Positions 6,805 through 57,926 of a DNA stretch of 64,000 nt are shown piece after piece (position 1 is the first letter of the stretch; each line of letters begins with the position of its first letter). The position numbers and the translations under genes were made by a program. A model generated the notes under the pieces. The model had not been told where the DNA came from and did no database searches. It saw only the letters and a program-made list of their open reading frames with translations. Source of the stretch: Bryoerythrophyllum caledonicum (lineage: Eukaryota; Streptophyta; Bryopsida; Pottiales; Pottiaceae); assembly GCA_963971425.1 (NCBI GenBank), contig OZ020520.1, positions 6,552,553-6,616,552 of the forward strand. The letters are read 5' to 3'.

Positions 6805-7135
6805 AGAGAATCCTATTTACCCCGGTCGAGAGGTGCACCAAGCCGCATGCCCCAATTTTGGTGAAAAAAATTCCAAAAAAAACCTCTAGGATCCTAAAAC
6901 GGGCAAAAATCATTCTTAAAAAAAAGAGTTTGATCCTGGCTTAGAATGAACGCTAGCGATATGCTTAACACATGCAAGTTGAACGTTGTTTTGGAATAAA
7001 AATGAAAACAAAGTGGCTAACGGGTGCGTACTAACATGTAGGAATCTGCCAAACAGTTTGGGCAGGGCCAGAAAAATGGACCCAGCTGAGGCTGAGGTTT
7101 GGTGCACCCCTCGACCGGGGTCAATAAGGAGATCC
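6805..7135 (+). mobile_element. Mutator-type MITE, copy 2, interrupted by mitochondrial DNA
   Basis: A perfect 9-bp duplication TGTGCAGAC flanks it (6796-6804 and 7136-7144), and its ends match the other two copies. Comparison with the intact copy at 14466-14745 shows about 140 extra bases inserted at the conserved GGGCAGGGCC stretch. Those bases are mitochondrial rRNA. The element also carries the family-specific CCTCTAGGATCCTAAAA segment. Confidence 0.88.
6924..7063 (+). pseudogene. rrn18: Nuclear copy of the mitochondrial small-subunit rRNA 5' end (NUMT)
   Basis: The segment opens with the near-universal SSU start gagtttgatcctggc and continues gctagcgatatgcttaacac then atgcaagttgaacgttgttt. 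It later has a decayed form of the 'aacgggtgcgta ... gggaatctgcc' helix. The gaacgttgttttg stretch is characteristic of land-plant and charophyte mitochondrial rrn18 rather than plastid or bacterial 16S. Conserved CpG positions read TpG or CpA (for example aagttgaac for aagtcgaac, gccaaacagtttggg for gccgaacagttcggg). It is a short, non-functional organelle insertion inside a Mutator-type MITE. Confidence 0.85.
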
Positions 7136-10992: not shown

Positions 10993-13009
10993 TTAAAGGG
11001 AGTGAAGTCGGATTGATGCAGCATCAGCGATTTCCTTGAGGGCCTTCACAACCGCAACAGACGCTCCTACGACGGAAACGTTGTCGTACTCGAGGCCGTG
11101 CTTGGTGCACAACGCCTCCACCTGAGGCGCGATCTTGGGATAGTTGTGTCTGGGCATACTGGGGAACAGATGGTGCTCAATCTGGGTGTCAAGACCTCCA
11201 GTAAACCAGTCATTGAACCAGCTCTGCTTCGTGTTCCGGGTTGTAACAACCTGCAAAAGCAGCATCACATTTGGCAGAAAACTTAACAGCACATCGGCAA
11301 GAGCTTGCTGGATGAGCTACAAGTATGCCTACTGCAGGTTCAAACAAAAACACAGGCCGCCTTCACAGTTGTTTCTTGTCCATTTCACACTACAAGCGCC
11401 GCAGTATCACCAGGATATTAGACCTTTATCATATACATATCGCAAAGTGTCGTGTAAGAATATCAGGAAATCAACGTGCGACTTGTGGTTTTGCGTACCT
11501 GGGCTCTCACGAAGTCCTTGGATTCGTTGTAGACCTCCTTGCCATTGTGACTCAGTGTAAACACGAATCCTAGGAGCAGACCTCCAACGAGCTCAGTGGC
11601 CACCATCCACGCAAGAGGCTTGGCATACCCGGGCAGAAGATGGAACGCAGCCCAGCTGAACCAGATGTAGTGGAAGGCAACGGTTGCCTTCTCCACAAAG
11701 CCCTTGGTGGGGCTCAAGTCAGGGTTGAAAGTGAAGAGCATGCTGCCGAAGGTCCAGCTGTACCGGGCCATGAACAGGAGCGGCAGAATCAGGTAATGCT
11801 GGTACTGTAGGACTCGCAGGATTCGCTTGCTCTCCACAGTGGCCAGAATGCCCTTGCTCCACGCGATGATGGGGAGCGTGTCAATATCCTCATCCAGCGG
11901 TCTGTACTGCTCGTCACACTCATTCGGAGCCGTGTGGTGAATGCTGTGCTTGGTTTGCCACCACGAGACGCTGAATCCGAGAACGCAGTTGCCGAACAAG
12001 TAGCCGAAGAACGTATTGGCCGCACGATTCTCAAAGACCTGTCCATCAATTATCGAGAAATAAGTTAAAACCCATCAGATTTACTTGACAAGAGATAATT
12101 ATAAGGAGAACTACAGTACCTGTTGGTGCAGGAAATCATGGGCTAGCCATCCACACTGTTGGACGAACAGGCCCATCAGACTGGCGGAAAGCAAAATGGC
12201 GAAGTAACTCTTATCGTAGCACAAGGTTGCAATGCTCCCCGCAAAGAGAGCAGCGTTGATGAGAGTCTGGAGGAAGAACCATGCCTTGGAGCTCTTGAAG
12301 AGCCCTTCTCTTGTGTACCGGGCTCTCATTTCTCTGTAGTCCTTCAGCAACTCATCAAGCGGTTCTTCCCTCTACACCAACAATAGGCCGCGCCACATCA
12401 ATCCTCAGCACAGAGTAATATTCCTAGATATTATTTGAATGCGAACGATTATCATAGTACAAACTTTTCACTCACAGCAAGGTCCCCAACGTAGTAGTCA
12501 TTGAGTAGCTTCCATGCAAACGGTGGATGGAACGTTGCGAAAACGTCTGTGCCATCACGTCCGAAGTAGCTGCTGATGACCGTCCCTCCAGGATGGTCGT
12601 CCGCAAAACGGCTCACATCATACACCTGCAACAAAAGTTCAACGAAAGAAACAGGCTCTTAACTGGCCAAAACAGGAACACATCACCGCTTACACACATC
12701 GTAATGATTCTCAGCTGATTGTAACAAGTTCGCAACCATATTGATTACCTTCTCTTTGACAATCATCCAGGAGTCTCCGGGCCTGTCGTGAGAGGCAACA
12801 TCTGCCAGCGAGTAAGTGCCTGGCTTGAATTTCTCCTGCACCTGCCTCTGTCTCAGTGCTGTCTGGGCAGCTGTTTTCCCTTCTAGAGCGGGGGCCTTCT
12901 TAGCGTGTTTCAGAGTTGGCCCGTAGTTTCCAGTGTAGCTCTGGGTGTATACACTGTACTTGCTCCATGTCGTTCCCAAAAAGTTCAGAAAGTCGGTAAC
13001 GAGAGCCAT
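10993..13009 (-). CDS. Front-end acyl-lipid (delta-6 type) fatty acid desaturase, five exons
   Basis: The product is a membrane-bound di-iron desaturase with an N-terminal cytochrome b5 domain, expected in the endoplasmic reticulum making polyunsaturated C18 acids on lipids. Exons on the minus strand are 13009-12749, 12625-12476, 12371-12120, 12038-11499 and 11250-10993. All four introns are GT-AG and phase 0, giving 486 residues with no internal stop. Visible motifs are DDHPGGTVI (heme binding), HDFLH, KHSIHH and the diagnostic third box QIEHH, whose Q marks front-end desaturases. The leader of about 75 residues before the b5 domain and the overall sequence resemble moss delta-6 desaturase closely. 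Regiospecificity (delta-6 versus delta-5) is inferred from resemblance only. The start is the first ATG of the frame and gives a family-typical length. It is the only intact gene in the window. Confidence 0.95.
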
Positions 13010-33189: not shown

Positions 33190-34175
33190 GTTGAAATTAA
33201 TCTTAATCTAATTTAAAACCCTAATCCAATTAATTCTAATGCTAGAAGATGAACTCTAATCCTAAGTCAAAGTTAAATCCTAATCATACGTCAAAGTGAA
33301 ACCCTAACCCTAATGGATGAACCCTAAACCTAATGGATGAATGGTTTGGATGATATTAGATTAAGAATTTAACCATGCAAGATTAACAAGATAAAATATA
33401 AATGTAAAGGTAAAAACGTACTTGTAGGTAAAAATTGGAAGTGAAGTAAGTATAAGGGTTAAAGTTAAAGATAAAAAGTAAAAGCAAACATGGAAGTAGA
33501 AGTTAAAAGTAAAAAAAACAATAAGTGGTCATAGGATTCCGTCAAGGCCACAGAACCCCGTACAACTAAATTAGTTGTAGCTCCTCTATCTTTGGTTGAC
33601 TTCAAGCAACTTAGATGTCAATAAAAAGCAAACTCCAAGACCTTCTAGTCCACATAAACTTAGCTCGAGATTCGTCACGGTCTGTTGGCAATCGCCATTC
33701 AAAGTTGGCCCTTCAGATTTGCCGGCATCAGACCCCCTAACTCCAAATCCACCACAATCTTCTAAACTTGACCTAGATTGAAGCGCGCCAAATGTCTTCA
33801 AAAATCTAGTTTAATGATCTACAAACAACTTGAATCTCAAGTTCAAGTTTGTTGTTGTTTGGCTGCACTAGCCCGCCAAAGTTGATGCTCTCAATTCGGC
33901 CAACTGCAAACCCCTCAAGAGTCAACTCGCTGTAACCTCCTTGTCATAGCTTGGAATCACGCATGTTTGGTGTCTATTCAAAGCTACCTTGACAATCTAC
34001 AGGCCTTGCAAATCTTGTTATAAGATTTGTCACAATCCATCAGCAATCACCCTCCAAAGTGGGTCCTCTACATCTTCTTGGCAGTAGACCCTCTGACACT
34101 AAAACTATCCTTACTTTTTTGTCCTTGCTTTAAATCAAGCGTGCTTTGTGTATTTTAAAAGGTAATAAAAAGATC
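33190..34175 (-). repeat. Left inverted arm of the 33-41 kb region
   Basis: Read in reverse, this segment shows the same succession as 40345-41172: a gttttagtgtcagagggtct phrase, diverged sub-repeats with ggggtctg, an AT-rich gtaaa/ttttac stretch, and ggrttcatccattag repeats at the outer end. The arms are diverged (by eye well under 80% identical) but collinear. No target duplication was found. Confidence 0.55.
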
Positions 34176-34681
34176 TAAGTATCCTAAGAATATGATGTCT
34201 TGTTAGGCTCGGCAGTGTTATACCCCATTTGGTTCACCTTGGATTTCTGGGAGGAAACAACAAGTTATAGACCAGGATGGCAAGTAGGAGATGGGCGGAA
34301 GGCCCAGCTGCCAGCTTGTTTTGTTTGAATTCTGACTGGCAACCTTGCAGATGTGTTTTCCTTCTCAAGAGATATGGATGTGAAACCACTATGGTTTCAG
34401 GAGGGTGTTGAAGATTTTTCAATGACTACTTCTACACTTAAGGAAGTACATGCCCACGCACTGGGTATACGAGTGGTAGAGATACAGAGAGATATAAACC
34501 TGGTATTGAAGCAGCGTGGAATACCACAACTCAGCTTGAGAAGGATGTTGAACAAGTCATCGAAGATGTTTGGCAGTACTCAATGCTTCCACAAGTGGAA
34601 GATGACTCTAGAGAGGACCAAGAATTAGGACCACCTCTGGATACTTCCACCATTCACTAGAAGTCAGCAGAGGATGGTATT

Positions 34682-35640
34682 GTGTTGTTGAAGCTACTTA
34701 GAAGAATTGAAAGTAGCTTTGCAACACTGCTGCAAGCGGGGATCAAGGTCATACGCTACATCTATGTGGATGTTGATGAGGTAGTGAGGCACGTGGCCAA
34801 GCCACATTCTCGACAATTGAGGACACAATTTCCGGACTTGCTGGCCACTAATGCCATCAAGACTTCCTTCTCTACCCTTGTTGATGATATTGCCTTGCTT
34901 TCGGCAGAGGACATTCACCGTGTTGGCCATGTGGACCTTGTCATTGCGGGTTGGCCCTGTCAAGATATGCCTTTTGCTGGACATCAAAAGGGGTTGAATG
35001 ATACTCGTTTATTGCGGTTTCATGATATGATCCGCATATTGCCTTTGCTTCAGACATCTCAAAAGCGACCACCAAGTTATATTGTGGAAAATGTACCGGT
35101 GGTGAGTAGCTCTACGTCAAGGACCTTGGAGAGCATGCAACGCGTACACCAAACTATGGGCCTGCCCATGTTGCTGGATGCGGTTGCGGAGGGATCGCGA
35201 GCACATTGTCCACGGTTGTGGTGGACAAATATGGCACCTCAAGAGTTGCTACAGTCCGCCGTGGGTCGTATTAAACGGTCGGATGTTTATGTCACTGATA
35301 TTTAAGATCCTCACAGAGGTGCGTTTACCATGACAATCAAACACCTTTGGCAATGGTTAACCGCAAGGAAGAACCACGTAGGGCATTGCCCATGTTGGTT
35401 AGTTTTTCTAGGTTGTATGGCTTAAAAAATAACTGCCATGGCCTTGTTTGACCATGGCCTTGTCTCAAAAGATGGTAGAGCCCAATGCGGATAAACGGAA
35501 GAGAGCCATGGGCTTTCTCACGAGCACTACCAATGCGTCCGACATTTTGGAGAAACAACGGCAATTTTTACTTGGACAAGCAATGGATTTAAATTGCTTG
35601 ATTTGGATCGTTTCATTGCTAGGGGCAGAGCAAAAGCGGT
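34682..35640 (+). pseudogene. Cytosine-C5 DNA methyltransferase (Dnmt3/DRM-like) domain
   Basis: Conserved motifs appear in normal order. A degenerate motif I/II: LLQAGIKVIRYIYVDVDEVV. Motif IV: VDLVIAGWPCQDMPFAG, with the catalytic PCQ. Motif VI: IVENVPVV, with ENV. Motif VIII: CPRLWWTNM. Motif IX/X: ERAMGF-like RAMGFLTSTT then FLLGQAMDLN. The KGLNDTR stretch after motif IV and the late LLGQAMDLN recall Dnmt3/DRM enzymes. The first part ends with TAA at 35305. A short segment in another frame (35353-35449, RRALPMLVSFSRLYGL) probably holds part of the target-recognition region, and the rest follows in a third frame from 35448. The usual motif I glycines are missing. This copy is therefore inactive, but the catalytic core is well kept. 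Confidence 0.8.
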
Positions 35641-36146
35641 TAGCTTCAAGTTTCACTGGTTACATAAAATCTTATGAGTTGCGGGCGGCCATAGAACCAT
35701 TTGTCTCTGTCAGGGTGACAGGAAAAGTGATTGGGGGCGAGAGGGCATTCGCACTTCAGTCATGGAACATGCGAGGTACCGCAAATCTTTTTGCGACGCC
35801 CAAGAGTGAGGATCCTTGGCATGGAGTGGAGGATTGGAACCAAAGTAGGGCATTGGCCCACCAAAAGAGGGATTTGGAGGACGTTGTGGAGAAGATGTTC
35901 ATGGAAGAACACACAACTTACCAAATGAAGGAGATTGGCAAACTAAGCCAATTTGAAGGACTTGGAAGCATGATGAAGATGGGGGAAGAAGAGCTTTTTC
36001 TATCTCGCATTCAATAGCAATCAAGAAAGAAGAATCTTGCTCCAAAAGAACCGAAGGAGGTGGTGACCAAGGAAATTTAGAAACCGATCGTAAGCCTCGT
36101 GGATTGAGCAGTTCAGGTAGAGGAACATGAGTTCCTCAAGGAATAC

Positions 36147-36835
36147 ATGGATTGTTTTGCCTTTAGTCTAGAAGATCTTGGAGTGTTGAAGGGGCAAGAA
36201 GTACATATTACATTGACGGACAAAGCACCAATATACCGGAATTCGTACAAATATAGCGACTTTGAATGGAGGATGATACGCGCTCGTACGGAGGAGTTGA
36301 TGGCTGCAGGGCTAGTGGAGTTGGCTCCACCGGATTGTGAGTATGCATCGGCAACGATTATGCCATCTAAGAAAGATGTCTACGCTAATTGGACCGAAAA
36401 GAGGATGTGCAGGGACTATAGGTGGATTAATAAATTCACCAAGTTGGTCGTTATGCCATGCCAACATCAGAGGAGAACTTTGAAGCTATTGGTCACACCA
36501 GAGTGTTCAGTACGTTGGACTTGCGCTCTGGATATCACTTGATTGGACTGAGAGAGGAAGACAAGGAAAAGACCGCGTTCTGGGGCATTGACAAAGATGG
36601 AAAGGACCGGTTATTCCAATGGAAGTTCTTACCATTTGGATTGAAAAATGCGCCTGCCAAATTCCAGAGTGTTATGGACCGATTATTCTTGGGCTTGGAC
36701 TTTGTGGAATGCTATATTGACGACATTGTTGGCTTCAGCAAGAACTGGATGCAACATAGGGTACACTTGATAGAAGTGTTTGCTAGATTGAGGTTCCACG
36801 GTTTGAAGTTGCACCTTGGTAAGTGCAAATTCTAA
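36147..36835 (+). pseudogene. Ty3/gypsy reverse transcriptase, frameshifted
   Basis: The N-terminal part (LKGQEVHITLTDKAPIYRN, RTEELMAAGLVELA) is in one frame to about 36455. The frame then shifts to PTSEENFEAIG, LDLRSGYHL, LPFGLKNAPAKFQ and the catalytic YIDDIV. After a TAA at 36835 the thumb and connection regions (to 37051) and a short RNase H start (LHTDWSTLEIGVVLTQ) follow in the same frame. The intact YIDDIV next to one frameshift and a few stops suggests moderate age. It belongs to the methyltransferase-bearing retroelement. Confidence 0.88.
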
Positions 36836-37190
36836 TTTGACCACATCGAGTACTTAAGATATGTGATATACCCAAGTGGATTGGGTGTGGTAGCTAGCAA
36901 AATTGAAGTAATGATGTCTATTCTTAGACCAAGGGATGTTAATAGGCTACATGAATTCTTAAGGTTGTATAACTACTGTAGAAAGTTTATGAAGACTTTC
37001 AATGCTATTGCCAAGCCATTGACCATGTTGACAAAGAATAATAAAACTTAGATCTAGGGAGATGAGCTAGAGGCGGCCTTTCAAAAGTTGAAGGACCGCT
37101 TGGCATCGACACATATACTTTGAAGGCCGATAGCAAGAAGGACATACCAGCTACATACGGATTGGAGTACGTTGGAAATCGGCGTGGTGT

Positions 37191-37266
37191 TGACTCAAAG
37201 TTCTTACTTTGGAGGGTAATGAATGCAGCGCAGGCATCAATGGTGAAGCCCATTAAAAACAAAGAT
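37191..37266 (-). repeat. 75-bp fragment repeated at 40257-40330
   Basis: The segment encoding FTIDA and FITLQSKN on the minus strand occurs here, exactly where RNase H is cut off, and again at the start of the GHTHEDID-motif gene. Similarity ends abruptly on both sides. It may be an exon fragment moved by an element or a short repeat of its own. Confidence 0.65.
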
Positions 37267-37279
37267 TTTGGGCTCAGGT

Positions 37280-39274: not shown

Positions 39275-40330
39275 AGCCGTTAAAATACAATCTATATACA
39301 TCCAGATTAGTTCAAATTCAGTTTCTTCAACCCAATAATTCCCATGACTAGAATCCCACCGTTAGTACGTTTCCAAGTCTACATGATGTTGGGATGTAGG
39401 TTTGAAGTATTGCACTTTAATCTCATGAAAATGTTCACGATCCAGATGTGGATTAGTCAATGCCAAGGCAATCCAAAATGGGCGCAAATCCCCATCAGCA
39501 GAACGCACCACAAGTATATAGCCCTCATATACATCTCTACCAACCCGAAATGATGGAGGGGGGACAATGACGTCGTTGTCCAATGAATGGAGGGTCCTTT
39601 GCATACTCCTCCCTCAACGACCCATCAATCTCATATTCATCTATCATAGATAGAGCATATCTAGATAGTGGCCAGAACCCCTCTCGTAGGAGAAGCGATT
39701 CTTCCAAAAGCACCTCAAGGGCAGCCTTAACACCTCTCCAATAGTACATAATATGCTCGTTCTTCCTCCTATATTCATCTGAGAGATCCTCGTTAGCCAT
39801 AGATTCCCAAAGACTTAGAAACCCAGAGATACGCTTCAGAACCTCATCATAATTCTCATGACGTCGCGGAATGAGAGGAAGCGGTTGTCCACAAGGCAAA
39901 ATTGGAGTACTATCTACCGTCACTTTCCACAGCTGAATTCCTCCATTCTCCTCCGGCAACCAATCCCTATATGTACAAAGAATTTTGTATTGTATCTTTG
40001 GCAAACCATCTGAGCCCTTGTAGAACTTGAATTGTTGGCCCTTCGTGTGACTCGTAAGGGCCTCTTTGCCAATGTAGAAATATCTTTCTATAAAGCCCTT
40101 CAAGTCGGGCACCTCTACAATGAGGTGTGGAATAACTGGCTTATTCTCAGCATCCATGAACGATTTCATCAAGAGTGGGATCGTTGGATAGCTACTTGAC
40201 TTGAGTTTGGAACTCCATCTCCCAAACATTGCATCAATATCCTCGTGAGTATGACCAACAAGTAAGTTCTTACTTTGGAGGGTAATAAATGGAGCGTAGG
40301 CATCAATTGTGAAGTCCATTAAAAACAAAG
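39275..40330 (-). pseudogene. GHTHEDID-motif protein (DUF7869-like, transposon-associated)
   Basis: The frame at 40328-39537 contains VGHTHEDIDAMFGRWSSKL followed by about 200 residues of mixed composition. After one frameshift near 39590 it continues as GRDVYEGYILVVRSADGDLR, PFWIALALTN and a final WDSSHGNYWVEE. The GHTHEDID block is a signature of a widespread family of transposon-associated proteins of uncertain function; I infer DUF7869 from memory. The gene begins about 15 bp inside the right inverted arm, and its N-terminal part seems to be missing. Confidence 0.55.
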
Positions 40331-40344
40331 ATTTGGAACAAAGA

Positions 40345-41172
40345 CGATGGAGTTATGGTGTTTTTAGTGTCAAGGGGGTCTTGCTGCCAGCAAATTTTTA
40401 GCATCAACTTTGACTGGCCACTGCAGGCGGAATACAACAATTTTGGAGCTAAGCTTTGCAAAGCATGAAGACCTGCAAATAAAATTCTCTAAGACTCTTA
40501 GAACGCTTGAATCCAAGCAGAGATAAAGAAGTTGTGGCCCATTTTGTATTTGGGGTCTTGTTGTCAACTAGAGTCGTAGGGCGGATTTTGACAAGGGACT
40601 GCTAGCAGAAATAACGAATCTAAAGCTAAGATATTTAGAGTTTGAAGATTGTGAAGTTGTCTTTCCAAAGAGTCTTAGCACGTTCAAATCAAGTAGATAC
40701 AAAGAAGTTGCGGCCAACTTAGTGACAAGGGGTCTGCTGTGAGGCAGATTCAAACGTCCTACTTTAAAGGGCGATTTCTGTCAAACCACAAAGATTTTGG
40801 AGCTGATAGTTCGGGAGCTTTCCAATGACACTAAGCACGCTGCAAGGAGCTCAAATCTAAAGGAGTTGCGGCCGATTTAGTGACGAGGGGTCTGCTGTAG
40901 GGCAGATTCGGCGTCCCACCTTTTTTACTTTTAACCTTTACATCAATGTTCATTTTTATTTTTTTACTTCAATAATCTTACCTTTGAATTTTATTTATTT
41001 TTCTTATTTTTTTAATTTCATATCCATTTTCACTTCCACTTTACATTGTATGGTTGAAATTTTTAAACTTATCTCATCTAATAAAGTTCATCCATTAGGA
41101 TTAGAGTTCATCCATTAGAGTTAGGGTTCATCCATTTGGATCAGGGTTTGGATTAAATAAATTTAAATTCAC
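40345..41172 (+). repeat. Right inverted arm, with three internal sub-repeats
   Basis: It is collinear in inverted orientation with 33190-34175. Three diverged units of about 160-170 bp (40430-40560, 40610-40750, 40785-40915) each carry ttttggagct or aaagctaag, aagaagttgcggcc-like and ggggtctgctg-like phrases. The outer part has three ttcatccattagg-like repeats. Long arms built of sub-repeats are seen in some Mutator- and foldback-type elements. Confidence 0.6.
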
Positions 41173-52418: not shown

Positions 52419-53265
52419 GTACGCTAGGGGGGTACAAAATGGGCAAAAATAATATACTACATAGTATGTTAGTTTTGAAGCCCTTTGTTAAATTGTTGTT
52501 GAATGCCAACCGTCCATTTTTTAGGTGGGGAGAAATCATGGCCAACAAAATGTTAGGTGAACTGAAAATCTCTTGAACAAAGTGTTGATTTTTGGGACTT
52601 TGTGTTGTCATAACACATGTTGCTCTATAAGTGGCCGAACCCTTTCCCGAGATGAAAATATTGCATACTACAAAGTCTAAAAATATACTAGAAATACTAC
52701 GTAGTATATCAATTTTTCCAAGGCACCGAAAACTAGGTTTTGAAGAAAATGATGGAAAATAAAAATATTTTTGAAAACTCTTTACATTTTAAGATAGATT
52801 ATTGTATGCTAAAGAAGGTTCGATAAGAATTTGGAGCAAAAATCAACATTTAACCCCCATTTAAAGCATTTTTTACAATAAACCCATTTTTTGCTATTAC
52901 AAGTAAATTTAAGTCTCTGATCATAATTTTTCATTTGGAATGACTGAAAAGAATATATTGTGCATGTAATCTGAAAGTTTTGTAGAATTGTGAACTTCTA
53001 ATCTCCCACAAGAAGTATATTTGTATACTTCTTAAAACTGTGACAAGTATATGGTAATTACAAATATACTTCTTCTCATTGAATTGTAGAGGGTTTTGGT
53101 GAAAATTTATGATATATGTGATGGCATGGAAGTCAACACTCACATTTTGGAGACCAACATCTGAAATCAAAAGCAGATTGGGCATGTGACGCGAAAGAGC
53201 AATTGTGACATGGCAAAAACGGTTTGTGACAGTTTATTCGTACCACCTTAGTCGACTATCACCCG
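52410..53265. mobile_element. Non-autonomous DNA element inserted in copia gag
   Basis: About 850 extra bases interrupt gag. The ends gtgggtataagtacgctagg and, inverted from the right, cgggtgatagtcgactaagg form imperfect inverted repeats. No transposase is present and the family is unknown. The exact target duplication is unclear. Confidence 0.6.
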
Positions 53266-53890
53266 TGTCCAAGCACAACAAGAAGGAGCCCAATGGCAAC
53301 AATGCGGCCTTGGTGTCAAAACAAAACAAGTGGGAGGCTCCTCTTCTTCACGTAGCAAGCCCAAGGTATGTTACAATTGTGGCAAACTGGGCCACATTGC
53401 ACAAAATTGATTTTGAGCCAAAGAAGTGGGAGCAGGACAATGCGAACCAAGCAAAGGAAAAGGAGAATGCCAATAATGCAAAGGAGGATGATGGCTATGC
53501 ATTTGCAACCCAAGGTGGACCACATTCCAAGTCCATGTATAAGTGGATCATGGATTTGGGCGCCACAAAACACATGACACCTCATAAGATGGCATTTGGC
53601 ACGTATAAGGTAATTACTCCAAATAACGTGTATTTGGATGATGATAGTGTTGTGGAGGCCGTTGACGTCAGATCTATAGTTGTCGAAGTGCTTTTGAGGG
53701 GTTGCTCTAAGAGGTTTAGTATCAAAGACGTTTTCCATGTGTCCTAATTGCAAGTGAAATTGCTCTTAGTAAGCAAACTTGTGACAAGTGCAATGAAGGT
53801 GCGTTTCAATGTAGATGGATGTATATTGAAGACACCAAATAAAGAATCATATTCTTGTGGTAGGACCTTGTGAAGGCAATTTGTACGAAA
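53266..53890 (+). pseudogene. copia zinc knuckle and protease
   Basis: The knuckle KVCYNCGKLGHIAQN ends in TGA where the last cysteine (TGT or TGC) belongs. In a second frame MDLGATKHMTPHK is the copia protease motif with the serine of DSGA changed to leucine. The protease continues to FSIKDVFHVS, and the sequence then runs into the next insertion. Confidence 0.82.
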
Positions 53891-53903
53891 CAACCTTCAT
53901 TAA

Positions 53904-54828
53904 CCCCTAAAGGACCACGACCACTTTTGCTCTAAAACCAGTCCAAAACTGCCACTGCCAAAAAGAGACATGAAAATCACATTTTAAAGTGAATTTTGGA
54001 TTTCCAATTGTAAGATCATAAAATAGACTTCTATATAAACATGTTGTTAAATTTTGGTTGCAAATCCACCGCACGGATTGATAGATTTTAGTGTTTAAAG
54101 TCAAAACAATGGTTCATTTTCTTCCTTGTGTTGAGTAGATCAGCAGACTTTGACTTCACTTTGTATCAAATTTTTGCATTGTACAAGGTCTTAATCTCTT
54201 ACCATTGTCTTAAGCATGATGTTGTTTCCCAACACACCAATTTTTAGAGATAAAAAAAGGGTGTAGCATATTCAGAACAAGTGTGCAAGGAGTGGAAGTT
54301 CAAAAATTGCCATTTCACATTTGATTTTTTTGTGAACTACACATGTATTCAAATGATAATACAAACGGTCAATAAGAAGGTCTTCACCACATATTGTTGT
54401 TAAAAAAATAAAAAGTGAAAAATATGAAGATCTCTGGGTTTCATGTAGAAAAGATGAAAAAAAATTCCCCATTGCCCGACAATGTGTGAAAATGTTTGAC
54501 TTGGAATAAAATGCCTTTTTACTCTAAAGACAAGAATTTTTTTTGAAAATTTCCATAGAGGGAAATATTCTTTATATGTGTGAAAAATCTCAATGTCAAT
54601 AGAAACTTTGTCAAAAATTTTGGAGCTGCCCGATTTCCTCACTTTTGGCTTTAAGTGGTACTAACTTTCAAACCACAAATCCAAAAAACAAAATGAAAAT
54701 ATGCCCCCGAAGCTCTTATCAGAGGTAATCTAGAATAAAAAATTCAGAGAAAAAAGATTTTTTTTCGAATTTTAGGAACCTGCCCAAAATGAGAAATCCC
54801 CCCGAAGGAGACTCTGGTCCTTTAGGGG
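53904..54828 (+). mobile_element. TTAA-target (piggyBac-like) MITE inserted in the copia element
   Basis: TTAA at 53900-53903 and 54829-54832 flank perfect 13-bp ends, cccctaaaggacc and ggtcctttagggg. Removing it with one TTAA restores the copia frame exactly across the junction (F-I-K-V-F-E). That proves insertion with TTAA duplication, the hallmark of piggyBac-type transposition. At 925 bp it has no coding capacity. Confidence 0.9.
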
Positions 54829-54832
54829 TTAA

Positions 54833-55500
54833 AGTGTTTGAGGCGGATGCGGCCAACATGGCACAATCATCAACAGAAAGCAATGCATTGAAGTTTTGGC
54901 ATCTTTGACTTGGTCATTTGACGTGAGAAGTGTGCATTTACTTGAAAGAATGGCAAGTGGTATGACTCTTGGCAAAGATGAATTATCAATGTCATTTTGT
55001 GAGAGGTGCGTGCAAGGCAAGCAACATAGGGCACCATTTCCAAAGGATGGAGCGACGCGTGCAACAAAGCCTTTGGACATTGTGCATTCGGATGTGTGCG
55101 GCCCTATGAGGACCAATTCCATAGGTGGTGCAAGGTATTTTGTGACCTTTATTGATGACTTTTTGAGGAAGGTGAAGGTGTACATCTTGAAGACAAAGGG
55201 AGAATGCCTTGAGAGGTTCAAAGAGCTCAAGGCCCTTGCAGAGAAGCAAATTATCGGAGCACAAAATCAAGGTGTTTCGGTCGAACAATGGTGGAGAGTT
55301 CATATTCAAAGGCTTTCAAAGTTTCTTGAAGAAGCATGGCATTGAGAGGCACACGTCAACACCTTACACGTCGGAGCAAAATGGAGTTGTGAAGCGTGCA
55401 AATTGTACCATAGTCGAAATGGCGAGGAGCATGATCCATGCACAACGCCTACAGCTTGAATTTTGGGTCGAAGCGGTGGCCAATGCGGTCTAACATCCGC
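54833..55500 (+). pseudogene. copia integrase
   Basis: The zinc-binding part shows LKFWHL (broken by a stop) and FCERCVQGKQHRAPF. The catalytic core has DIVHSDVCGPM and FVTFIDDF, and after a frameshift FRSNNGGEF (first N where D is usual), STPYTSEQNGVVKRAN with the catalytic E changed in context, then VEMARSMIHAQ. Several frameshifts and stops are present. Confidence 0.87.
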
Positions 55501-55701
55501 AATTGATGTCCGAGGAGGGCTTTCATCACTATCACACCGCAACAAACTTGGAGTGGACGTAAGCCATGCATTGCACATATGCGTGTATATGGATGCATTG
55601 CATACGCCATAGTGCCAAACACAAAGAGGATTAAGCTTGATGCAAAAGGCACAAAGTATTTGTCTTTTGACTATTGTGAGGGCACTAAGGCATATTAGCT
55701 C

Positions 55702-56979
55702 ATGTGCATTGAGACAAAGAAGATCATTAAGAGTCGTGATGTAGTATTTGTTGAAGATACTACTATTATTGGTGATGTTTTGGAGATGAGCCCAAGTGAG
55801 AGAAGCGAGACCCCTACTTTGGTGATCAAATCTTCGAAACCACCAACCTTAAAGAATTGCGATGGTGATACCAAGAAGGAAAAGAAATTGGATGCCAAAG
55901 AAGGTGTAGCATCTTCATCAACACATTCACCAAGCGATGAGGAATTTGGAAACTTACAAGCGCCGCGGTATCCAAGAAGAGAGTGTCGCTTGTCCAGTGA
56001 ATGAAGGAAGAGCCACATTTTACCTCAGTATGAGATGGAGCGTGCCAATGTGGCGTCATTGGAGGATCCTTTAAACATTTGTGAGCCTATGCAATCAGAG
56101 GATGCAAGCAAGTGGGAGTTGGCCATGCAAGAGGAGTACGACCCGTTCATGGCAAATGGTACGTGGGAGTTGGCCATGCAAGAGGAGTACGACCCGTTCA
56201 TGGCAAATGGTACGTGGGAGTTGGCTGCTCTTCCAAAGGATTGCAAGAGGTTTGGATGCAAGTAGGTGTTTCGTACAAAGAAGGATGCTTTGGATCGAGT
56301 AGTGAGCCATAAGGCAAGATTAGTTGCCAAGGGATACTCTCAAGTTTCGGGAGTTGACTTTCTTGAGACATTTACTCTATTTGCCAAGTTTACCACCATT
56401 TGATACATTCTTGCACTTGGGGCGGCCTTGGACTTGGAGATCCACCAAATGGATGTAAAAATTATATTATTGAATGATGAGTTGGAGGAGGACATTTACA
56501 TGGACCAACCCCAAGGTTTTGTACAAGAAGACTTTAATCATCTTCTATGCAAGCTCAAGAAGTCATTGTATGGACTCAAACAATCACCAAGAACATGGTA
56601 CCAACTCTTCGATGTTTTCTTCACAAAAGAAGGTTTTACAAGGAGCCAAGTGGGCCATTCCTTGTACATCAAGCAAACAAGTGAGTACTTGTTGATAGTC
56701 GTCATCTATGTGAATGGCTTAATCATATTGGCTAGCCTTTTGGGCAAGTTAACATGGCTTACAGGTAAACTCAATCCGGAGTTTGAGATGAGCAATCTTG
56801 GTGAGTTAAAGTATTATCTTGGTGTGGAATTTGTGAGAGACCGCAGAGCACGCACCATCACCATAAGCCAAAAGAGGTACGTTGAGGAGGTGCTCAAGTG
56901 CTTCAACATGGAGGAGTGCAAGCCTATTACTACCCCTCTTGATCTGAATGTCAAATTGTTGAAGCTTTTGGAAGAATAG
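55702..56979 (+). pseudogene. copia reverse transcriptase with in-frame 51-bp duplication
   Basis: The linker (TKKIIKSRDVVFVED, LSSE) leads to KWELAMQEEYDPFMANGTW, which is present twice in tandem. Later blocks are IYMDQPQGFV, LKKSLYGLKQSPRTWYQ, and YVNG where YVDD is required, so it is catalytically dead. It continues through MSNLGELKYYLGVEF to KPITTPLDLN. Stops near 56265 and 56402 and a frame change separate the blocks. Confidence 0.9.
56114..56215 (+). repeat. 51-bp perfect tandem duplication inside copia RT
   Basis: A 51-bp unit (17 codons, ELAMQEEYDPFMANGTW) occurs twice in tandem with no difference seen. Identity and frame preservation suggest a recent slippage or unequal-exchange event. 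Confidence 0.9.
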
Positions 56980-57009
56980 TTTGAGACGATTCAAGGTGAA
57001 ATAGAAGGC

Positions 57010-57688
57010 GTGCCATACAAGGGTGGAGTTGGGTCATTAGTTTATGCCATGGTAGGCATACTGCCTGTCCATGCATTTGCCGTGAGTATGGTGAGCCAAT
57101 TCATGTCTAGGATTGGTCCGATTCATTGGAGTGCGGTGAAGCGCATCATGCGGTACTTGCAAGCTACTATAGACCACAAATTGTGCTTTGGTGGTAAGGA
57201 CATTGCTGTGAGGGGATATTACGATGCAGATAGGGTCGGAGATACAAAAGAGCGTTGTTTAACAACGGGATATGTGTTCTTTGTTGGAGTTGGTGCCATC
57301 TCGTGGAATTGCAAGAGGCAACCAACCATTGCCTTAGCCACGACAAAAGCCGAGTACATGGCAACCTGCCAAAGTACAAAGGAAACCATTTGGCTTCACA
57401 AGCTTTTGGCGAATGTGGGATTTATTCAAGAAGCAACCACCATCATGTACAACAACCAAGGGTGCATAGCCCTTGCAAAGAACCCCACGTACCACTCACG
57501 TACAAAGCATATTGATGTCCAACATCACTTCATTTGCAAGAACTTGGAAAGTGGAGAGATAGATATGAAGTATTGCCCGACAGAAGACATGATGGCGGAT
57601 GTGTTAACAAAATCACTTGCAAAAGAGCGACAGCAAAGGTTAACAAGGCAATGGGATTGCGAGAAGGTAACTACTCGCAAAGTGGAAG
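57010..57688 (+). pseudogene. copia RNase H
   Basis: It contains YYDADRVGDTKERCLTTGYV, WNCKRQPTIALATTKAEYMA, NPTYHSRTKHIDVQHHF and ADVLTKSLAKERQ, the standard copia RNase H series, in one open frame running into the 3' LTR. It is the least damaged domain of the element. A purine-rich aaagtggaag just before the LTR serves as polypurine tract. Confidence 0.9.
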
Positions 57689-57926
57689 TGTTAGAGATTA
57701 GAGCTGCTCGTAGTTATTATGATATCGTGAATAGTTGAGGTAGATTGAAAAGGAAAAGTAAAGGAGAGAAAATGAAGAGAGGTGAAAGGAACTTAAAGTA
57801 GTCTCATATGTATTGGCAAAGGTTGATACCAATTGGTACTATAAGTGAAGGCCTTTGAAAAAAGGCCATATCTCACTCCAAGCATTGTTTGTAATACCGT
57901 GTGTGTTTCATTTGCTTGTGCAATCA
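57689..57926 (+). repeat. 3' LTR of the copia element
   Basis: It starts tgttagagattagagctgc and ends gcaatca, matching the 5' LTR throughout with scattered differences. Confidence 0.92.

What the first reader, a model, noticed from the sequence alone, without database searches (positions are those of the whole stretch)
34353..37196. A cytosine DNA methyltransferase fused into a Ty3/gypsy-type retroelement
Seen: methyltransferase motifs IV (GWPCQDM), VI (VENV), VIII (CPRLWWTN) and IX/X lie immediately upstream of a gypsy reverse transcriptase with intact YIDDIV. From 35448 to 36542 the methyltransferase tail, linker and RT head share one frame. No gag or protease is recognisable in between. 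Known: methyltransferase capture by retroelements has been reported in charophyte algae and dinoflagellates. Inference: this may be a related or new lineage in which the element brings its own methylation enzyme, perhaps to mimic or exploit host silencing. The Dnmt3/DRM-like look of the domain would matter for its origin.
Basis: partly seen in the sequence, partly recalled or inferred. Interest (0 to 1): 0.92.

Follow-up and report, generated by a model that had tools for sequence, protein, structure and literature searches.

The report
Jumping genes carrying DNA-methylating enzyme
The window holds a dead, cut-off piece of a large family of copy-and-paste jumping genes in this plant genome that carry their own DNA-methylating enzyme, a kind known from an alga and said in print to be missing from land plants, yet relatives turn up in mosses and liverworts.

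Summary
A broken DNMT3-type methyltransferase (34460-35639) lies just upstream of a Ty3/gypsy reverse transcriptase (36132-37198). This copy is dead: cut at both ends, four frame changes, many stops, SAM motif I destroyed; it sits between ~850-bp inverted repeats beside a DUF7869 gene piece. The fusion is no one-off. In the window's own genome 150 of 150 scored methyltransferase matches are at least 70% identical; 112 of the 150 best RT copies have one ~1,785 bp upstream, and 8 of 8 unpaired ones checked do too. Layout: gag-protease-DNMT, one in-frame TAG, then RT-RNaseH-integrase-PHD. After that TAG stands CAACCA in 24 of 29 copies, CAATCA in the window and a distant relative: the leaky-stop signal CAR-YYA. 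DNMT and RT head show equal purifying selection (median dN/dS 0.19, 0.20). Repeats mostly lie A-coding-B-A-B, as in the algal KnitGypsy-Dnmt3, with DDE integrase, TGTC/GACA ends and 4-bp target duplications (9 of 10 exact). B meets A at the palindrome GACAGCTGTC, suggesting integration from circular DNA. Relatives occur in Marchantia, Riccia, Calypogeia and Sphagnum, against a published statement about land plants. New member of a known kind; the circle model is inference.

The parts
34190..34352 (+). Remnant of the C-terminal part of the aspartic protease region (YDVLLGSAVLYPIWF...), frame 0, stop at 34326; left breakpoint of the fragment at 34190
   Evidence: tblastn with family proteins; DNA search of own genome: 39 of 40 scored matches begin at query base 131 = 34190
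34460..35317 (+). DNMT3-type cytosine methyltransferase, N-terminal two thirds, frame 2, stops at 34658 and 35303; motif I destroyed (34688-34714), motif IV GWPCQ 34949-34963, motif VI ENV 35087-35095, motif VIII about 35192-35233
   Evidence: Pfam PF00145 E 1.5e-10 on 34661-35305; alignments; stops
35317..35448 (+). Methyltransferase continuation, frame 1
   Evidence: tblastn segments
35457..36014 (+). Methyltransferase C-terminus (motif X region LGQAMDLN) and tail of ORF1, frame 0, ending ...EEELFLSRIQ
   Evidence: tblastn with P0118, P0110 and P0080 reaches 35993; P0118 and P0080 end in ...EEEEPPSPGIQ
36015..36023 (+). Native in-frame stop between ORF1 and ORF2, TAG CAATCA, matching the CAR-YYA leaky-stop consensus
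   Evidence: consensus from a passage of PMC2194720
36024..36443 (+). Linker and head of reverse transcriptase, frame 0, decay stops at 36078 and 36105
   Evidence: tblastn with L031 ORF2, 53% identity over 36132-36443; stops
36449..37198 (+). Reverse transcriptase body (YIDDIV 36713-36730) up to the first residues of RNase H, frame 2, stops at 36833, 37049, 37055, 37121; right end of homology at 37198
   Evidence: PF00078 E 5.2e-23; tblastn 56% identity; stops
33273..34136 (.). Left arm of a long degenerate inverted repeat that brackets the fragment
   Evidence: self blastn: 33273-34136 against 41157-40330, 60.8% over 882, E 1.3e-42
40330..41157 (.). Right arm of the long inverted repeat
39537..40352 (-). 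Piece of a DUF7869 gene inside the same inverted-repeat unit
   Evidence: PF25273 E 6e-15
37198..37268 (.). 71-bp copy of the DUF7869 gene stretch at 40264-40334 (93% identical), starting at the right end of the retroelement fragment

Best explanation
The window holds a dead, twice-truncated copy of a DNMT3-bearing Ty3/gypsy-type retrotransposon family that is large and recently active in this plant genome. SHOWN by sequence: members read gag (CCHC)-protease-DNMT as one frame, a single in-frame TAG with a CAR-YYA leaky context, then RT-RNase H-DDE integrase-PHD finger; DNMT and RT travel together and are under equal purifying selection; repeats lie A-coding-B-A-B (or A-coding-B) with TGTC/GACA ends and 4-bp target duplications; this copy is broken and lies in a unit bracketed by long inverted repeats. 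INFERRED: most ribosomes stop at the TAG and make gag-protease-DNMT, a minority read through and make the polymerase, so the DNMT is made and packaged at capsid level; there it can methylate the element's own cDNA before integration, which would pre-mark new copies with the host's own mark (tolerance or protection) rather than attack the host. Integration probably starts from circular DNA, the integrase cutting at the palindrome where B meets A.
For: Family in own genome: 150 of 150 scored methyltransferase matches (1,547 first-look candidates) at 70-79% identity, self at 100%. Pairing with RT: 112 of 150 (window included), median offset 1,785, none reversed; 8 of 8 checked of the 38 unpaired also paired. 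Layout and Pfam domains in an own-genome copy (CCHC, Asp_protease_2 and Retrotrans_gag below their curated cut-offs for the last two; PF00145; RVT_1, RNase H, Integrase_H2C2, rve, PHD). Same in a foreign contig, L031. Leaky stop: TAG CAACCA in 24 of 29, CAATCA in window and L031; background 3 of 1,842 TAGs on both strands of the window, this one included, followed by CAR-YYA. Selection: median dN/dS 0.194 (MTase, 219 of 276 pairs) and 0.198 (RT head, 217 of 276) in 24 copies. Recent activity: see the full report. Target duplications. Trees. DNMT3 rather than DRM.
Against: No activity, transcript, readthrough or methylation was measured. De Mendoza et al. saw no de novo methylation by KnitGypsy-Dnmt3 in yeast, which they call inconclusive (PMC5890265, passages). 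CpG is not specially depleted in pieces of two own-genome copies (observed/expected 0.56-0.79) or the fragment (0.60) against the window (0.60), so self-methylation has left no clear mark. The copies scored for selection and stop context are the best matches, a sample biased to well kept ones. One of 29 copies (L148) has no stop at the ORF1 end. P0061 has the DNMT before the RT but lies outside the type A clade in both trees.
Confidence: 0.8

Rival explanations
1. One-off nested insertion: a gypsy element fell next to a host methyltransferase gene or pseudogene and the junction is accidental.
For: In this window the piece is broken, shows no LTR and lies inside another repeat unit.
Against: 112 of 150 RT copies in the same genome have the MTase upstream at nearly one offset and none in the reverse order; 8 of 8 checked unpaired ones too; same order in Marchantia and Sphagnum gene models and in L031.
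Confidence: 0.01
2. The DNMT part is a passenger: it is carried along but does nothing for the element, or serves an RNA- or DNA-binding role without catalysis.
For: No activity was measured; the algal relative's domain showed none in yeast, judged inconclusive by its authors.
Against: dN/dS of the MTase equals that of the RT head; motif I and the PCQ motif are kept in most of the 29 copies read, and PCQ, ENV and motif VIII across 24 relatives down to about 33% identity.
Confidence: 0.15
3. The DNMT works outward: it silences competing elements or the host's defence genes, or was kept because it lowers the element's harm to the host.
For: Antiviral or host-serving roles have been proposed for transposon-encoded methylases (PMC6338049 passages; PMC5890265 Discussion).
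Against: Nothing here points outward; fusion to gag places the enzyme with the element's own particle, which fits action on its own nucleic acid better (inference).
Confidence: 0.2
4. The A-coding-B-A-B layout comes from ordinary linear integration followed by recombination between copies, not from circular DNA.
For: A-coding-B could form from A-coding-B-A-B by B1 x B2 recombination; one copy has more B-A units.
Against: A purine tract lies next to B1, so ordinary LTR ends would put B at the left end; yet the integrated ends, with exact 4-bp duplications, are at the palindrome inside that LTR in 9 of 10 copies read at both ends.
Confidence: 0.3
5. This fragment was captured and moved as cargo by a DNA transposon (long inverted repeats, DUF7869 gene).
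For: Inverted repeats bracket it; sharp left breakpoint at 34190; right end at 37198 coincides with a duplicated DUF7869 stretch.
Against: Of 40 scored matches only the window spans the left junction, so there is no sign that the chimera was multiplied; DUF7869 as a transposase is not established; the right junction was not searched and no target duplication of the unit was sought.
Confidence: 0.4

Closest known systems
KnitGypsy-Dnmt3 of the charophyte alga Klebsormidium nitens (de Mendoza et al. 2018, PMC5890265)
   Same: Unpermuted Dnmt3-class MTase inside an LTR Gypsy element; Gypsy domains with repeats arranged as in DIRS (paper's Fig. 4 legend; the Fig. 1 legend writes DIRS as A-coding-B-A-B); several intronless copies; purifying selection (paper: Ka/Ks < 0.2).
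   Different: The paper places the DNMT in the Pol ORF; here it is in the gag-protease frame, before an in-frame TAG. Readthrough context, PHD finger, palindrome and target duplications of KnitGypsy were not mentioned in the passages I read. Sequences of KnitGypsy were not available here, so membership by tree is untested.
SymbioDIRS-Dnmt3 and SymbioLINE-Dnmt of dinoflagellates (same paper)
   Same: Retroelement-borne DNMT; the DIRS version has A-coding-B-A-B repeats.
   Different: The DIRS version uses a tyrosine recombinase and the LINE version has an endonuclease; here a DDE (rve) integrase and 4-bp target duplications.
Metagenome polyproteins with RT-RNase H-DNMT and mostly integrase and PHD (type B here, among P0032-P0060)
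   Same: Related RT, DNMT, integrase and PHD domains.
   Different: DNMT sits after RNase H, before integrase; separate from type A in both trees.
Plant host DNMT3 (Physcomitrium; Yaari et al. 2019, PMC6453930)
   Same: DNMT3-class catalytic domain.
   Different: Host enzymes carry a DUF3444 domain (paper's passage); none was found in P0001-P0006, L031 ORF1 or L153.

Membership tests
Gypsy-Dnmt3 retrotransposons (KnitGypsy-Dnmt3 type) | DNMT3-class MTase and Gypsy pol domains in one element | tested here: met
   PF00145, RVT_1, RNase H, Integrase_H2C2, rve, PHD in L031 and in an own-genome copy; own-genome pairing. The window copy itself keeps only protease end, MTase and RT.
Gypsy-Dnmt3 retrotransposons (KnitGypsy-Dnmt3 type) | DIRS-like repeat layout A-coding-B-A-B | tested here: met
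   12 own-genome copies fetched: 7 A-coding-B-A-B, 3 A-coding-B, 1 with more units, 1 (L150/L151) with no repeat found. The window copy has no ends to test.
[quoted passage not shown]
   Median dN/dS 0.18 (324 of 406 pairs, 29 copies), 0.194 (219 of 276 pairs, 24 copies).
Gypsy-Dnmt3 retrotransposons (KnitGypsy-Dnmt3 type) | One clade with the K. nitens element | not tested
   No K. nitens sequence was among the named hits listed.
DNMT3 | Unpermuted motif order and closest match to DNMT3 among solved proteins | tested here: met
   best PDB matches DNMT3C/3A/3B; motif order I-II-IV-VI-VIII-IX-X in relatives.
DNMT3 | Falls with host DNMT3 genes in a tree | not tested
   No host DNMT3 sequence was at hand.
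DRM | Circularly permuted catalytic domain | tested here: not met
   DRM2 chains match profile positions 5-131 only, with their C-terminal end (about 226-351 of 352-357), i.e. the query is not permuted.
DIRS elements | Tyrosine recombinase instead of DDE integrase | tested here: not met
   rve and Integrase_H2C2 found, no tyrosine recombinase family, in L031, an own-genome copy and six database proteins.
Host plant DNMT3 gene | DUF3444 domain | tested here: not met
   Not found in P0001-P0006, L031 ORF1 or L153 ORF1 part.
Programmed stop-codon readthrough (TMV type) | CAR-YYA directly after the stop | tested here: met
   TAG CAACCA in 24 of 29 copies, TAG CAATCA in window and L031.
Programmed stop-codon readthrough (TMV type) | Measured readthrough | not testable with these tools
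   No expression data or assay.

The most novel reading that the evidence does not exclude
A Ty3/gypsy-type retrotransposon that does not integrate its linear LTR ends but circular DNA: the integrase cuts at the palindrome GACA-GC-TGTC inside the LTR (B.GC.A), so that one-LTR circles give A-coding-B and two-LTR circles give A-coding-B-A-B, both with 4-bp target duplications. The same element makes a DNMT3 at capsid level through a leaky stop and may methylate its own circle before integration, so that new copies arrive already marked; a PHD finger on the integrase may choose the chromatin.
Probability: 0.4. Interest if true: 0.88.

Novelty: new member of a known kind. Interest (0 to 1): 0.72.

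Why it matters
Transposons are silenced by cytosine methylation, yet this family carries the enzyme that writes the mark and keeps it under selection as strict as on its polymerase. A published argument rests on land plants lacking such elements (PMC6338049, passage); named moss and liverwort proteins found here contradict it. A high-copy family with near-identical repeats in a plant makes old questions testable: whether the enzyme marks the element's own DNA, whether a leaky stop sets gag-level dosage, and whether a DDE integrase can use circles.

Tried and rejected
Rejected: chance junction; DRM origin; a host DNMT3 gene (no DUF3444); an open fusion frame over 35448-36542 (three stops).

Led nowhere: viral-contig scans with P0006, P0002 and A2 gave no close relative (2, 0 and 28 loci, 25-43% identity); of the 80 loci kept from the genome-contig scan only L031 was close (51%), the other 79 were 20-41%; Rfam and tRNA scans of the window gave nothing; CpG depletion gave no signal; primer-site and purine-tract guesses in L031 were inconclusive; the host could not be named. 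Structure prediction was never accepted, so no fold search was made. Never answered by the genome search: own-genome PF00145, two patterns (135, 137), right junction.
Full report
WHAT IS THERE. The open frame 34661-35305 matches the cytosine methyltransferase family PF00145 (E 1.5e-10) and 36434-36835 matches reverse transcriptase PF00078 (E 5.2e-23). By sequence the methyltransferase is closest to DNMT3 among solved proteins (E 9.8e-7 for DNMT3C; HhaI 5.2e-5; 4onj, recalled as a DRM, 0.097). A profile of its family gives DNMT3C 1.7e-19, and DRM2 matches only with its C-terminal end to the first third of the profile, as expected if DRM is permuted and this is not. The RT's best solved matches are RT/RNase H 4ol8 and the Ty3 polyprotein.

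THIS COPY IS DEAD. Compared with relatives it runs protease end (from 34190), linker, methyltransferase, ORF1 tail, RT, and stops at the start of RNase H (37198). The frame changes four times, and stops lie at 34326, 34658, 35303, 36078, 36105, 36833, 37049, 37055 and 37121 besides the native 36015. Motif I reads LKLLRRIESS where relatives read LDLFGGISTG or similar. In the own genome, 39 of 40 scored DNA matches to 34060-34320 (402 candidates) begin at the same base, 34190, and only the window spans it: a sharp truncation. The piece lies between inverted repeats 33273-34136 and 40330-41157 (60.8% over 882), with a DUF7869 gene piece (39537-40352 minus) and a 71-bp copy of part of that gene starting where the homology ends. 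Capture by a DNA transposon is one reading; it is not shown.

THE FAMILY. Protein searches found gag/protease/DNMT proteins and DNMT-RT polyproteins: 6 of 1,386 candidates, 61 of 8,000 and 319 of 8,000 (120 listed). The named plant sources are bryophytes: Marchantia polymorpha, M. paleacea, Riccia sorocarpa, Calypogeia fissa, Sphagnum fallax, S. troendelagicum; most of the rest are unnamed metagenome proteins. Domain order with session-made profiles over the 62 proteins: DNMT before RT in 7, RT before DNMT in 19, not both seen in 36. The second order (type B) is RT-RNase H-DNMT, mostly followed by integrase; a PHD pattern was seen in 21 of 62. Trees: the methyltransferases of type A form a clade with the window's (34 of 56 rows, support 100/99), the RTs of type A too (6 of 26 rows, 99/98, the window's row filling only 28% of columns), and three small type B clades recur in both. 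P0061, with DNMT before RT, lies outside type A on long branches in both trees. This is what common descent of the two domains predicts; one capture with a later move, or two captures, cannot be told apart without host DNMT3 sequences.

A WHOLE ELEMENT. L031 (9,285 bp, in a MAG labelled Synechococcales; by content eukaryotic, inference) has identical 127-base ends, so the assembly was circular. It encodes gag with CCHC, protease and DNMT in one frame (running over the contig ends), a TAG, then RT-RNase H-integrase-PHD in the same frame.

OWN GENOME. The window lies in a 437-Mb assembly of 894 contigs. The 214-residue MTase piece found 1,547 first-look candidates; all 150 that were scored match, at 70-79% identity apart from itself; the true number is not known. 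The RT piece found 3,257 candidates, 150 scored. Of these 150, 112 (the window among them) have one of the 150 scored MTases within 8 kb upstream on the same strand, median offset 1,785, and 0 have it downstream. Of the 38 unpaired, 8 were read and all 8 have the DNMT upstream, most in two or three broken segments; 30 were not read. The fusion is stable. One copy read in two pieces (L152, L153) carries, by Pfam, zf-CCHC, a weak protease and gag match below their curated cut-offs, PF00145, and after the TAG RVT_1, RNase H, Integrase_H2C2, rve and PHD.

THE STOP. Seven listed relatives of the window's subfamily end in GIQ (P0080, P0099, P0110, P0118, P0122, P0126, P0180; other listed ones are open-ended pieces), and the window has ...RIQ and TAG at 36015. 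In 29 own-genome copies (L121-L149, the 29 best after the window itself), 24 have TAG CAACCA at this point; of the other five, four are full of stops in the frame read (L145 also holds 200 N) and one (L148) has no stop there. A copy of a second subfamily also has TAG CAACCA. The window and L031, whose methyltransferases share about 41%, both have TAG CAATCA. [quoted passage not shown] In the window 3 of 1,842 TAGs on both strands, this one included, have it.

SELECTION AND AGE. Across 24 copies, median dN/dS is 0.194 for the MTase (219 of 276 pairs with dS > 0.02) and 0.198 for the RT head (217 of 276); over all 29 the MTase gives 0.18 (324 of 406 pairs). These are the best matches, so the sample leans to well kept copies. 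Repeat pairs inside copies differ little: A and B together by 0, 2, 5, 4, 0 and 1 bases of about 600 in copies 152, 154, 156, 162, 164 and 168; in 166 A by 1 of 367 and no difference between its B-A units; in 172 A by about 5 of 373, B not compared. These are recent insertions.

REPEATS AND ENDS. Twelve copies were fetched in pieces. Seven read A-coding-B-A-B, three A-coding-B, one has further B-A units (its right end is outside the piece), and one (L150/L151) showed no repeat. Elements begin TGTC and end GACA. Of ten copies with both ends read, nine have exact 4-bp target duplications and one matches at 3 of 4. Where B meets A the sequence is GACAGCTGTC in 6 of 8 copies, GACAGTTGTC in one, altered in one; L031 has GACAGCTGTC at 7051. 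A purine tract lies directly before B1, so by the usual rules (recalled) the LTR would be B.GC.A; no ordinary tRNA primer site was recognised after A1 (by eye). Integration ends inside that LTR, with target duplications, are what cutting circles at the palindrome would give: one-LTR circle to A-coding-B, two-LTR circle to A-coding-B-A-B. Recombination between B1 and B2 could also make A-coding-B. This model is inference.

WHAT IS KNOWN. De Mendoza et al. 2018 (PMC5890265; outline, passages and Discussion read) describe KnitGypsy-Dnmt3 in Klebsormidium nitens: Dnmt3 in the Pol ORF of an LTR Gypsy element, repeats arranged as in DIRS, Ka/Ks < 0.2, no activity in yeast (inconclusive). Repeat layout and selection match here. 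Morozov et al. [quoted passage not shown] the bryophyte proteins contradict this for land plants, and whether tracheophytes have them is not settled here. [quoted passage not shown] Searches of an open-access library (listings; passages of some papers) showed me no report of a DNMT-bearing gypsy element in a land plant; subscription papers are not covered.

LIMITS. No function was measured, no structure could be predicted, and no host DNMT3 or K. nitens sequence was at hand for the tree.

Noticed in passing
window 33273-34136 and 40330-41157, with 39537-40352 (-): A unit of about 7.9 kb bracketed by long degenerate inverted repeats with internal sub-repeats, holding a DUF7869 gene piece; DUF7869 may mark an undescribed transposon type.
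   Followed up: partly
window 37198-37268 and 40264-40334: 71-bp direct repeat (93%) of a DUF7869 gene stretch, one copy starting where the retroelement fragment ends.
   Followed up: partly
P0032-P0060 (metagenome proteins): A second architecture, RT-RNase H-DNMT, mostly with integrase and PHD behind, in 19 of 62 proteins; hosts unknown.
   Followed up: partly
P0158 (Riccia) with P0031, P0087, P0108 (Sphagnum) in the tree: A liverwort sequence groups with moss and metagenome sequences rather than with Marchantia (99/99), at high identity for such old hosts; horizontal transfer or old subfamilies.
   Followed up: no
L152:3115-3762: An extra open frame (216 aa, no Pfam match) upstream of gag in an own-genome copy, with a similar one in L150:3091-3759; it slightly overlaps the open stretch of ORF1.
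   Followed up: partly
L031 (CADCWO010000201.1): A seemingly eukaryotic retrotransposon contig sits in a cyanobacterial MAG; P0062 is labelled Spirochaetia and P0065 Candidatus Obscuribacterales: probably misbinning.
   Followed up: partly
window 53190-57738: Decayed Copia element (Pol_BBD at 53190-53747; RVT_2 at 56404-56979).
   Followed up: no
window 11463-12074 (-): Fatty acid desaturase gene piece (PF00487), front-end type by recalled resemblance.
   Followed up: no
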